DNA of 64,000 nucleotides, taken from Prochlorococcus marinus str. GP2 (GTDB lineage: Bacteria; Cyanobacteriota; Cyanobacteriia; PCC-6307; Cyanobiaceae). This document shows, one piece after another, positions 3 through 23,753 of the stretch. The translations under genes and the position numbers were made by a program. A model generated the notes under the pieces. The model had not been told where the DNA came from, ran no database searches, and was given only the letters and a program-made list of their open reading frames with translations. Position 1 is the stretch's first letter. The number at the start of each line of letters is the position of its first letter. The stretch spans positions 124,001 through 188,000 of the forward strand of contig NZ_JNAH01000008.1 of NCBI RefSeq assembly GCF_000759885.1, in the 5' to 3' direction.

Positions 3-542
3 GCAGCAGCAAGAAAAGTTGGATTATCTGGCAAAAAGATTAAAGATTCTTTATCTAATTACAAACAATTACCCCATAGGATGGAAACAATTTATAAAAA
101 TAATAATCTGGAAATCATTAATGATAGTAAAGCTACAAATTTTGACTCATCTATTGCGGGAATCAGTTCAATTGAAGGTCCAATAATAATCATTGCTGGG
201 GGTAGATTAAAAGGCAATGAATATAGTGAGTGGATAAAAGTTTTAAAGAAAAAAGTTAAATGTGTTTTTCTTTTTGGAGAAAGCTCAAAAGTCCTAAAAA
301 TGGCGCTTATTAATGAAGGATTTAAAAAAAATATTTTTGAATTTTCAGAACTAAAAGAGCTTTTAAATTTTGTTTTTCATTATTTACAAAATAATAGGGT
401 TGGGACATTATTATTCTCACCTTCATGCTCTAGTTTTGATCAATTTAAAAATTATGAAGAGCGTGGAGATTATTTCAAGAAACTAATAAGTGAAAAATTA
501 AAGGTTAATAAATCCATTTTTTATTCAAGTATCATTTCGTAA
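3..542 (+). CDS. murD: UDP-N-acetylmuramoylalanine--D-glutamate ligase, C-terminal part
   Basis: This is the 3' part of murD, open at the left edge of the window and read in frame 3. MurD adds D-glutamate to UDP-MurNAc-L-Ala in cytoplasmic peptidoglycan precursor synthesis. The visible part carries the family's Mur-ligase marks: LPHRME, then NDSKATN, the IIAGG segment, and near the end [17 protein letters not shown], the C-terminal hallmark of MurD. The ATP-binding central domain lies outside the window. An internal ATG at 81 exists, but the homologous reading continues upstream of it, so the gene does not begin there. The next gene follows after 86 bases on the same strand. Confidence 0.93.
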
Positions 543-628
543 TTTTCAGGTCGGTCATCACAACCGTTTACCCTCTAGCAAATATTCACTTAATTAGTTA
601 GATTTTGACTATAAATTAACTACTATCA

Positions 629-16655: not shown

Positions 16656-16883
16656 GCTAGGAAAAAATGTTAAGTGTAAAGCATTCTTTTGATAATTATG
16701 TCCCAACTTGAATAAAAAATTATTAATGAATTAAATTATGTGTTTTAATCCAATCTTCAGATGAATTGCTGATGATAGGCAATTATACTCACACTAAGTA
16801 ATTTTACTTATTAGAATGTATGTAGCATTTAGGAAGTGCTTATCAAGTTAACTTCGGAAATCTGAATTTAACTAGTTCGTCAT

Positions 16884-16916
16884 GAGCTTGCCGTTGGGAT
16901 ACGCGCAAGCTCTTTT
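16884..16916 (+). ncRNA. GC-rich hairpin with T run, possible small RNA 3' end
   Basis: GAGCTTGC (16884-16891) pairs perfectly with GCAAGCTC (16905-16912) around a 13-nt loop CGTTGGGATACGC, followed by TTTT. It lies in a 443-base gene-free spacer (16605-17047), over 250 bases from the nearest coding start, so it does not end a visible gene. It could terminate a small RNA transcribed from about 16.8 kb. The rest of the spacer shows nothing. Confidence 0.45.
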
Positions 16917-21449: not shown

Positions 21450-21560
21450 AATACATGTTTACCATGATGCAGCTCCCGAACTTGCTCAAGTCCCCGTCCT
21501 ATGGCTTGAGTCGTACTGCGGTCTATCAGATGGTAGATCGGACGATTTTGTAGTATTTAC
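21450..21560 (+). ncRNA. structured GC-richer spacer element, possible small RNA
   Basis: Within a spacer without a convincing gene (21178-21601), base composition rises sharply and two hairpins follow each other: CTCAAG...CTTGAG (about 21485-21510) and CGGTCTATC-AGAT-GGTAGATCG (about 21518-21540), the latter with two wobble pairs and then GACGATTTTGTAG. Transcription direction is not certain. The isolation from genes and the two stems suggest an RNA gene rather than a terminator. Confidence 0.4.
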
Positions 21561-22393: not shown

Positions 22394-22570
22394 ATTAAGA
22401 CAGTTTCTTTGAAGGTTTCAATATTTAAATTCATAGCTTAATGAAAATTGCAAAACTTATTTGAGTTAAATTGATTACTTATTTCTATTGCAAATAAAAT
22501 AAAGTTTTTTAATTTTGCACTTAATTAACATCCTTTATTTTAAAGAAACCAAATTAGACATTGAATAAAA

Positions 22571-22610
22571 GTCAATCTAAACTTAAAGGGATAAACCTCT
22601 CTTTTTTATG
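22571..22610 (+). repeat. short dispersed repeat, family R3, copy 2
   Basis: GTCAATCTAAACTTAAAGGG, then ATAAACCTCTCTTTTTTATG. It ends in the ATG of the leader ORF at 22608, exactly as copy 4 (29317) ends in the ATG of the gene at 29353. It is probably a promoter/leader module for the mini-ORF operon. Confidence 0.55.
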
Positions 22611-22667
22611 GTTAATAGATTTATTGCTGAAAAAATAATGACTCTTCTCATTTCTCTTCTCAGCTAA
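22608..22667 (+). CDS. leader-type mini-ORF, 19 aa
   Basis: MVNRFIAEKIMTLLISLLS, with a hydrophobic C-terminal half. The stop TAA shares one base with the ATG of the next gene. It is either a genuine micropeptide or an upstream ORF that couples translation of the operon to its leader. Confidence 0.4.
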   Translation: MVNRFIAEKIMTLLISLLS

Positions 22668-22783
22668 TGAATATCTCACCACACCTATTAATTGATGCTG
22701 CGATATTAAGTGCTGCCCTCACAATAACTTTGGTCTTAAGAGCAAAAGGAAATGCTGTTAGAAAAGATAAAGGAAATCAATGA
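22667..22783 (+). CDS. tiny membrane peptide, 38 aa
   Basis: MNISPHLLIDAAILSAALTI then TLVLRAKGNAVRKDKGNQ: a single helix with a strongly basic tail. It is the second member of a string of overlapping mini-genes; its stop overlaps the next ATG by four bases (ATGA). Confidence 0.6.
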   Translation: MNISPHLLIDAAILSAALTITLVLRAKGNAVRKDKGNQ

Positions 22784-22920
22784 TTACAAAAAAAGAAGAA
22801 AAAGAATTTAAAAAACCAAAAATATATAAAATTTCTAACTTTCTTATTTACGGAAGTTCTATTGCTATTGGAGTTTTTTTAGTTTATCTATATTCTGCTT
22901 ATGTTTTTATAAATAAATGA
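22780..22920 (+). CDS. small membrane protein, 46 aa
   Basis: A basic, polar N terminus (MITKKEEKEFKKPKIYKISN) and a hydrophobic helix FLIYGSSIAIGVFLVYLYSA ending in a short YVFINK tail. N-in topology is expected. ATGA overlaps at both ends link it to its neighbours. Confidence 0.6.
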   Translation: MITKKEEKEFKKPKIYKISNFLIYGSSIAIGVFLVYLYSAYVFINK

Positions 22921-23012
22921 CACATATTTACGGCACAGCAATTACTTATGGTGTTCTGAGTCTGTTATTGCTTGGTGGGTTTGCATACTTTACTTTTAAA
23001 ATAAAACGCTAA
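22917..23012 (+). CDS. tiny membrane peptide, 31 aa
   Basis: MTHIYGTAITYGVLSLLLLG then GFAYFTFKIKR: a glycine-containing helix and a short basic end. It overlaps the previous stop by four bases; the next gene starts five bases after its own stop. Confidence 0.6.
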   Translation: MTHIYGTAITYGVLSLLLLGGFAYFTFKIKR

Positions 23013-23017
23013 TTTTT

Positions 23018-23143
23018 ATGTCCTCTTCAATAAAAGAATTCTTGGATAAATTTTTTGATTTATTTAGAGAATATCAACAAGTAATTCCACCTCAAAAGAT
23101 GGCTGAGGTTTTAAGAGAATATGCAGAAAGATTAGATGGATAA
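23018..23143 (+). CDS. small soluble protein, 41 aa
   Basis: MSSSIKEFLDKFFDLFREYQ followed by QVIPPQKMAEVLREYAERLD and G. It is a helical hairpin with a proline turn and no membrane segment. It is the last member of the mini-gene operon and the only clearly soluble one, so it may be a cytoplasmic partner of the membrane peptides (inference). Confidence 0.6.
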   Translation: MSSSIKEFLDKFFDLFREYQQVIPPQKMAEVLREYAERLDG

Positions 23144-23304: not shown

Positions 23305-23412
23305 ATGAGTACATATAAAACGAAATACTTTAAAAAAACAAAAAAAATCAACAACACCTTATGGTTAGACAGATTAATTAATCAACTTGAAAAACAAGAA
23401 AAGGAATTTTGA
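23305..23412 (+). CDS. small soluble protein with WLDxLIN motif, 35 aa
   Basis: MSTYKTKYFKKTKKINNTLW then LDRLINQLEKQEKEF. The WLD-R-LINQLEK helix resembles WLDKLINNIEE of the 45 aa protein at 30632. It is basic at the front and ends two bases before the ATG of the twin-CX3C gene, so they are probably cotranscribed. Confidence 0.5.
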   Translation: MSTYKTKYFKKTKKINNTLWLDRLINQLEKQEKEF

Positions 23413-23414
23413 AT

Positions 23415-23603
23415 ATGAATAATTTTAGAAATAAACAATTCAAAAATCTATTAAATCCCAAGTATGCCTTCTATGATTGCCTTCGAAGCTGCGAACTAAA
23501 GCGTTCCTCTGAAGAATTATTAGATGAATGTGTAGAGAATTGTGATTGGGGGTCTCCATCAAAAGATTCAAATAACAAAGGGGCTTACAAAGCCCCAAAA
23601 TAA
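23415..23603 (+). CDS. small twin-CX3C protein, 62 aa
   Basis: From the ATG at 23415, helices around residues 17-45 carry two CX3C pairs (C22/C26 in DCLRSC, C39/C43 in ECVENC). This is the same logic as the 52 aa protein at 12072, although the spacing differs (12 residues between pairs instead of 8). The frame also opens at TTG 23409 overlapping the previous stop. Its last codons form the hairpin of the following terminator. Confidence 0.7.
   Translation: MNNFRNKQFKNLLNPKYAFYDCLRSCELKRSSEELLDECVENCDWGSPSKDSNNKGAYKAPK
23580..23596 (+). terminator. hairpin at gene end
   Basis: GGGGCTT (23580-23586) pairs with AAGCCCC (23590-23596) across a three-base loop, inside the last codons of the twin-CX3C gene, followed by an A-rich stretch. 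On the minus strand the T-rich tract after the stem would fit a terminator for transcription coming from the HLI gene at 23625-23753. Confidence 0.6.
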
Positions 23604-23624
23604 AAATTCATAACGAGATTTTTA

Positions 23625-23753
23625 TTAGAAAATACCTGGCACAATTTGACCAGTAAAATAGTATGCCCCCATTAGAGCAAACATCCCAAGCATTGCTGCT
23701 TTACCGTTAAGCTTTTCAGCTTTTTCAGTCATTAATTTTTTAGCGAATTCCAT
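23625..23753 (-). CDS. high-light-inducible protein, 42 aa
   Basis: MEFAKKLMTEKAEKLNGKAA, MLGMFALMGAYYFTG and QIVPGIF: an HLI helix in which the conserved Arg of the E-x2-N-x-R ligand pair is Lys (E13 ... K18). The thylakoid location is inferred from the family. Its stop faces the convergent terminator hairpin at 23580. Confidence 0.9.
   Translation of the reverse strand: MEFAKKLMTEKAEKLNGKAAMLGMFALMGAYYFTGQIVPGIF

What the first reader, a model, noticed from the sequence alone, without database searches (positions are those of the whole stretch)
22608..23143. Chain of mini-genes linked by start/stop overlaps
A 19 aa leader ORF, three single-helix membrane peptides (38, 46 and 31 aa) and a soluble 41 aa protein follow one another. 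The first four are joined by one- or four-base overlaps (TAATG, ATGA, ATGA), and the fifth starts five bases later. The R3 element provides the first ATG. Such coupling implies stoichiometric production of a small membrane complex. I cannot match any member to a known photosystem or oxidase subunit.
Basis: partly seen in the sequence, partly recalled or inferred. Interest (0 to 1): 0.5.

Follow-up and report, generated by a model that had tools for sequence, protein, structure and literature searches.

The report
Relay of tiny overlapping membrane-protein genes
In the ocean photosynthetic bacterium Prochlorococcus, three tiny conserved membrane-protein genes share start and stop codons behind a short leader and a repeated control sequence that also sits in front of many other small genes and in a few viruses, which suggests a portable switch for such genes.

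Summary
The five ORFs, coordinates and overlaps are as described. P1, P2 and P3 (38, 46, 31 aa) are real genes: crude dN/dS 0.13-0.30 in frame, about 0.84-1.4 in shifted frames, and junctions in place in most of 67 compared loci. P1 is in 72 of 84 genomes of the genus, weakly in 6 of 166 others of the order. P4 is looser: 15 of 67 intact, but it occurs in 13 genera. No member matches a known family. The new finding lies upstream. The first ATG follows a copy of a dispersed ~45-nt element: box ATTGACAGTCGATC, TANNNT (-10-like), terminator-like hairpin, T-run, ATG. The box occurs 4-31 times in 58 of 58 genus genomes, 1-2 times in 5 of 142 others; copies precede ORFs of 40 clusters. One uncultured cyanophage contig carries element plus P4. 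The 19-aa leader is reused behind the element before five other kinds of small membrane or exported protein genes. Best reading: a portable promoter-terminator cap and a coupling leader drive a relay of micro-membrane proteins. Transcription start and protein function are inferred.

The parts
22555..22560 (+). TAGACA, -35-like hexamer 17 nt before the -10-like box
   Evidence: consensus scan only; similar TAGACA/TAGACT in most orthologous loci by eye; no conserved -35 over 74 unrelated copies of the element
22565..22607 (+). window's copy of the dispersed element: box 22565-22581 (degenerate, 4 mismatches), -10-like TAAACT 22578-22583, weak hairpin 22585-22604, T-run to 22607
   Evidence: read against the consensus; fold
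22608..22667 (+). 19-aa leader ORF MVNRFIAEKIMTLLISLLS, stop overlaps P1 start (TAATG)
22667..22783 (+). P1, 38-aa single-helix membrane peptide
   Evidence: (dN/dS 0.13)
22780..22920 (+). P2, 46-aa single-helix membrane peptide; ATGA overlap with P1
   Evidence: (dN/dS 0.27)
22917..23012 (+). P3, 31-aa single-helix membrane peptide; ATGA overlap with P2
   Evidence: (dN/dS 0.30)
23018..23143 (+). P4, 41-aa soluble peptide, loosely attached; separate gene behind its own element copy elsewhere

Best explanation
The chain is one polycistronic unit for small membrane proteins, started by a portable 5' module. Step 1 (inferred): RNA polymerase uses the TANNNT box of the element and starts about 7 nt downstream, inside the hairpin, so the unit's own mRNA carries only loop, 3' arm and U-run before AUG and cannot form the terminator, whereas read-through RNA from upstream carries the whole hairpin and can be stopped just before the gene. 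Step 2 (inferred): ribosomes load on the U-rich leader AUG without a Shine-Dalgarno sequence. Step 3 (anatomy shown, coupling inferred): they terminate at TGATG or TAATG and re-initiate on P1, then pass through ATGA junctions to P2 and P3. Step 4 (inferred, weakest): P1-P3 act together as a small accessory complex in a membrane. Element and leader are separable modules that stand in front of many other small genes in Prochlorococcus and, rarely, in cyanophage DNA.
For: Junction spacing kept in most of 67 loci and purifying selection on P1-P3. 72 of 86 P1 copies start inside an upstream stop codon, and the coupling position is kept when the upstream ORF differs; when one stop is mutated the next in-frame stop gives a 4-nt overlap (L073). 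No Shine-Dalgarno-like sequence before the leader, P1, P3 and P4 of the window by eye; P2 has AAGGA. Nine other genes directly follow the same leader, always behind an element copy. Element: 58 of 58 genus genomes, ATG at a fixed distance, T14 A15 T19 in 74, 73 and 70 of 74 contexts, hairpin 32 of 85 against 2 of 255. Predicted own transcript is unstructured. purC of two inspected cyanophages has the same spacing of -10, hairpin, T-run and ATG.
Against: No transcript start or translation data were available. The leader is not under visible coding constraint in the high-light-locus clade (pN 0.109, pS 0.062) and has lost its ATG in some loci. Perfect hairpins are missing in 53 of 85 contexts and do not track the orientation of the upstream gene (p = 0.82). 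The window's and the MED4 copies at this unit have weak or lost hairpins. The promoter scan finds fewer sigma-70-like sites in the region than shuffles do. P3 and P4 are replaced in one clade. No evidence that P1-P3 bind each other.
Confidence: 0.5

Rival explanations
1. The leader is not a coding device but a conserved 5' untranslated RNA (attenuator, sRNA target or ribosome-loading element) whose open frame is incidental.
For: In 43 orthologous loci its third codon positions are as conserved as first and second (0.891, 0.861, 0.872); pN exceeds pS among 50 distinct sequences; start lost or stop inside in some loci.
Against: Among 16 island-type leaders pN/pS is 0.37 against a neutral simulation of 0.84, minimum 0.67 (pairs are not independent). 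The stop always abuts or overlaps the next start in the reused copies.
Confidence: 0.25
2. The element is a mobile repeat or recombination site that builds cassette arrays; its position before ATGs reflects insertion or selection at cassette boundaries, not promoter function.
For: Same-strand arrays with 300-1400 bp spacing in three genomes; upstream ORF stops 0 or 4 nt into the box in 9 of 42 co-directional contexts; element plus P4 in a cyanophage contig.
Against: A -10-like TANNNT with free middle positions and matching geometry at phage purC, without the box, fit a promoter. No recombinase or empty sites were looked for.
Confidence: 0.2
3. The hairpin is simply the terminator of the upstream gene, and the promoter lies elsewhere.
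For: In 42 of 67 contexts the upstream ORF runs in the same direction, often within 40 nt; hairpin with T-run is terminator-like.
Against: In 21 of 67 contexts the upstream ORF is on the other strand; the distance to the downstream ATG is fixed; there is no room for a promoter between T-run and ATG (direct reading).
Confidence: 0.1
4. The overlaps are ordinary compaction of unrelated small genes and P1-P3 do not work together.
For: ATGA overlaps are common in bacteria (general knowledge); P3-like genes and P4 occur apart from P1-P2.
Against: P1-P2 order and overlap are kept in 61 of 67 loci, at two kinds of chromosomal site; a P1-like gene lies in a differently composed overlap chain in another genus (L041).
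Confidence: 0.25

Closest known systems
Translationally coupled operons with a leader ORF (termination-reinitiation at TAATG/ATGA; recalled)
   Same: stop/start overlaps, no Shine-Dalgarno before most internal starts by eye, conserved junctions
   Different: one 19-aa leader is reused before at least six kinds of small genes, each time behind the same dispersed element
Intrinsic (Rho-independent) terminators and cyanophage promoters such as that before purC
   Same: GC stem, short loop, T-run; -10 to ATG distance 23-25 nt
   Different: terminator-like hairpin lies between -10 and the start codon of the gene it precedes; Prochlorococcus copies add the box ATTGACAGTCGATC, which the phage purC sites lack
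Integron gene cassettes with attC sites (recalled)
   Same: same-strand arrays of small genes separated by a repeated structured element
   Different: the element is 5' of each gene, about 45 nt, with a T-run; attC boxes and an integrase were not looked for
Single-helix subunits of photosynthetic or respiratory complexes
   Same: size, single helix, membrane
   Different: no profile match; distribution limited to one genus, P1 with weak relatives in a second
Yfr small RNAs of Prochlorococcus (PMC2518516, Table 1 and passages)
   Same: island location; in G015 an element copy begins 17 nt after the end of Yfr11
   Different: no Rfam family covers the element or the unit in the window

Membership tests
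Translationally coupled small-protein operon | stop/start overlaps conserved between genomes | tested here: met
   51, 61 and 46 of 67 loci; 72 of 86 P1 copies
Translationally coupled small-protein operon | downstream translation depends on upstream translation | not testable with these tools
   needs start-codon mutants or ribosome profiling
Translationally coupled small-protein operon | members under purifying selection | tested here: met
   P1-P3 dN/dS 0.13-0.30; leader only in island-type copies
Intrinsic terminator (hairpin of the element) | GC-rich stem followed by T-run | tested here: inconclusive
   perfect in 32 of 85 contexts against 2 of 255 control; consensus copies fold at -11.7 and -11.9 kcal/mol, window copy -5.2, z -0.52
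Sigma-70-type promoter (element) | -10 hexamer TANNNT at fixed place | tested here: met
   T14 74/74, A15 73/74, T19 70/74 (positions 14 and 15 were part of the search pattern, 19 was not)
Sigma-70-type promoter (element) | -35 hexamer about 17 nt upstream | tested here: not met
   only a T-rich tendency over 74 contexts; TAGACA at this locus
Sigma-70-type promoter (element) | mapped transcription start | not testable with these tools
   no TSS table held
Integron gene cassette | attC boxes and a cognate integrase | not tested
   considered only from the array layout
Rfam RNA family | covariance-model match at the element or leader | tested here: not met
   three matches in the window, none in 22555-23143
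Known photosystem, NDH or oxidase small subunit | sequence or profile similarity to a known subunit | tested here: not met
   best E 0.12 (P2 profile, TOM5), 0.78 (P1), 0.059 (P4), none a photosynthetic subunit; P3 was searched only in Pfam, NCBIfam and PHROGs

The most novel reading that the evidence does not exclude
Prochlorococcus uses a ~45-nt self-insulating expression cap: a promoter fused to an intrinsic terminator whose 5' arm fills the gap between the -10 box and the transcription start, so that the gene's own transcript escapes termination while read-through is stopped at its start codon. With an optional 19-codon coupling leader it serves as an interchangeable front end for dozens of small island genes, forms a regulon, and is shared with cyanophages, which can carry cap plus gene.
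Probability: 0.3. Interest if true: 0.8.

Novelty: new variant of a known kind. Interest (0 to 1): 0.57.

Why it matters
Prochlorococcus has few protein regulators (PMC2518516, passages), and its islands are full of short genes of unknown function. A shared, recognisable 5' module would explain how newly gained small genes become expressed, would group many of them into one regulon that can be checked in existing MED4 transcription-start data, and gives a simple sequence handle for finding unannotated micro-proteins. The P1-P3 set is a conserved, uncharacterised membrane unit in one of the most abundant photosynthetic organisms.

Tried and rejected
Photosystem, NDH or oxidase subunit idea: no profile support. 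Phage origin of P1-P3: P2 not found in annotated phages (only unrelated weak hits) or viral contigs; only P4 with its element, in one contig; P4 not found in annotated phages at E 0.01; the chain DNA gave two weak short phage matches (not followed). Glutamine-II riboswitch link: one lies about 1.1 kb upstream on the other strand and another about 0.75 kb downstream of P2 in G015, neither adjacent to the unit. Hairpin as insulator chosen by neighbour orientation: tested, no association. One search, the same test with a looser box (4 mismatches), gave 24 hairpins in 99 contexts and also no association; I take it to include chance matches, and one search replaces it. One search's hairpin count (232 of 338 with at least 6 pairs, 36 of 338 shuffled) is redundant, dominated by orthologous loci, so the 32 of 85 is the figure to use. 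Alignment A5 put the two hairpin classes out of register, so no covariance model was built. The class-B element query against phages gave weak matches to other phage groups, taken as chance. No structure prediction was run: single helices would say little. Papers: the motif strings were searched in full text (one hit, an E. coli enzyme paper, listing only); other searches (listings only) showed no title on such an element. Read in part: PMC2518516 (passages, sections 7 and 14), PMC5607370 (passages), PMC5126843 (passages), PMC3037559 (passages). 'Not described before' rests on these searches only, in an open-licence library.

Full report
OBSERVATION. The region was read base by base. All five ORFs, lengths, coordinates and the TAATG, ATGA, ATGA and 5-nt junctions are as stated. 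P1, P2 and P3 each have one hydrophobic segment; P4 has none. Names used here: leader, P1 (38 aa), P2 (46 aa), P3 (31 aa), P4 (41 aa).

CONSERVATION. P2 was found in 28 of 60 relatives and in 53 of 200 genomes of the order: 51 of 58 of the window's genus, one of them (G260) a weak hit in an unrelated long frame, plus two weak hits in another genus. P1 is in 72 of 84 genus genomes and weakly in 6 of 166 others. In 67 P2-bearing loci (L012 dropped as a duplicate) the offsets -172, -113, 0, +137, +238 recur; junction counts are 51 (TGATG or TAATG), 61 (ATGA) and 46 (ATGA) of 67. Crude pairwise dN/dS: P1 0.13, P2 0.27, P3 0.30, P4 0.25 (15 intact of 67), leader 0.91; shifted frames mostly 0.84-1.4, with one outlier for P4 (7.8, very few synonymous changes). 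Pairs are pooled and not independent. Some genomes carry broken P2 copies, including a second, decayed one in the window's own genome (L029). In most loci the chain sits downstream of a 126-aa gene (window 20123, DoxX-like by recall) and upstream of a 177-aa gene (window 27001); eight loci show none of these neighbours.

VARIANTS. A second clade (G015, which has MED4's coordinates, included) has P1-P2 followed by a DUF1651 gene instead of P3-P4. In G008 and G012 the leader is replaced by a longer ORF ending shortly before P1 (stop at -11 by the count); in L045 (G076) P1 overlaps the end of another gene by TAATG, though that P1 copy is broken. In genus g79 a P1-like 30-aa gene lies in a chain of other small ORFs, again with ATGA overlaps (L041). 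So the P1 start near or inside an upstream stop is kept while the upstream ORF changes. P4 has a wider life: 98 of 250 genomes in 13 genera.

LEADER. A search of held loci found 90 leader-like copies, 78 before P1. Of the other 12, three do not count as reuse (L115 is a shortened P1 locus, L263 looks unrelated, L310 has no adjacent ORF). Nine are followed, zero to four nt after the stop, by P3-like genes (L151, L209, L222), a 31-aa MIGSLPKL-type gene (L174, L222, L224), a MELLHQ gene (L174, whose leader lacks ATG and has an earlier stop) and two signal-peptide or lipoprotein-like genes (L205, L265; by eye). All nine lie behind an element copy. The 16 island-type leaders have pN/pS 0.37 against a neutral simulation of 0.84 (minimum 0.67); the 50 other distinct leaders show the reverse (pN 0.109, pS 0.062) and are conserved as nucleotides. 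I take this as a translated leader whose RNA sequence is also constrained at this locus, with the untranslated reading as a real rival.

ELEMENT. Upstream of the leader lies ATTGACAGTCGATC-TAAACT-hairpin-T-run-ATG in most relatives. The box is dispersed: ten genomes held 6-19 copies each against 0-1 for the reversed pattern. The longer pattern ATTGACAGTCGATCTAANNT with up to 2 mismatches occurs in 58 of 58 genus genomes (4-31 copies) and in 5 of 142 others (1-2 copies); the reversed pattern matched once in 200 genomes. In held loci 409 box copies (up to 3 mismatches) were found, 338 with a T-run; in 221 of these an ATG with at least 15 codons starts 41-46 nt from the box, and the ORFs fall into 40 clusters, some short singletons perhaps spurious. 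Pfam names for three of them: DUF3764, DUF3804, DUF3303. Over 74 non-redundant contexts A(-1) is 67/74 and T19 70/74, positions not used in that search; T14, A15 and T19 frame a -10-like TANNNT. A stricter set of 85 contexts (T19 required) gave a start codon at +37..49 in 48 (random positions 9.8%) and a perfect hairpin with T-run in 32 (control 2 of 255); hairpin presence was independent of the upstream neighbour (p = 0.82). In 21 of 67 contexts the upstream ORF is on the other strand.

MECHANISM. If transcription starts 7 nt after the -10 hexamer, the own transcript lacks the 5' arm and is unstructured, while read-through RNA folds at about -12 kcal/mol in consensus copies. The start of purC in two inspected T4-like cyanophages has the same layout with a better -10 and without the box; 54 of the 64 records matched are cyanophages by name (E 0.02-0.9 in the rows shown), and only two were inspected. 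Two viral contigs carry the full element: L315, with phoH, element and P4 in a row, and L314, where the element precedes a short ORF and uvsX. The window's copy and the G015 copy at this unit have weak or lost hairpins, so here box, T-run and ATG may be what matters.

FUNCTION. No homology gives a function. Single-helix partners translated in relay suggest an accessory complex in a membrane. The window also holds Yfr20, which in MED4 lies in genomic island 5, described as responding to phosphorus starvation and high light (PMC2518516, passages). This is inference.

VERDICT. Observation confirmed; interpretation partly supported; the larger point is a reusable upstream module that I did not find described in the searches listed under Tried and rejected.

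Noticed in passing
window 21485-21547 (-): Glutamine-II riboswitch aptamer about 1.1 kb upstream of the chain, other strand; G015 also has one about 0.75 kb downstream of its P1-P2 pair (L345).
   Followed up: partly
window 16823-16907 (+): Yfr20 small RNA, placed in genomic island 5 of MED4 by PMC2518516.
   Followed up: partly
L315, about 430-570 (-): Cyanophage contig with phoH, a full copy of the element and an intact P4-like gene in a row.
   Followed up: partly
L314 1037-1102 (+): T4-like cyanophage contig with the element before a 20-aa ORF and uvsX; upstream genes resemble host island genes by eye.
   Followed up: partly
L361 690-734, L362 683-726: Cyanophage purC start: -10, terminator-like hairpin, T-run and ATG with the spacing of the Prochlorococcus element but without its box.
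   Followed up: partly
L041 1373-1947 (reverse complement): In another genus (g79) a P1-like 30-aa gene lies in a chain of 41-, 30-, 53- and 67-aa ORFs with overlapping junctions.
   Followed up: no
window 23305-23753: A 35-aa and a 64-aa ORF that nearly overlap, then an hli gene on the other strand (PHROGs), lie between the chain and the 177-aa gene here but not in most relatives.
   Followed up: no
L029 (window's own genome, contig C1): A decayed P2 copy follows a 31-aa MIGSLPKL-type ORF and a 53-aa Cys-containing ORF that overlap by 4 nt.
   Followed up: no
L341 18607-18755 (-): In G015 an element copy begins 17 nt after the end of the Yfr11 small RNA.
   Followed up: no
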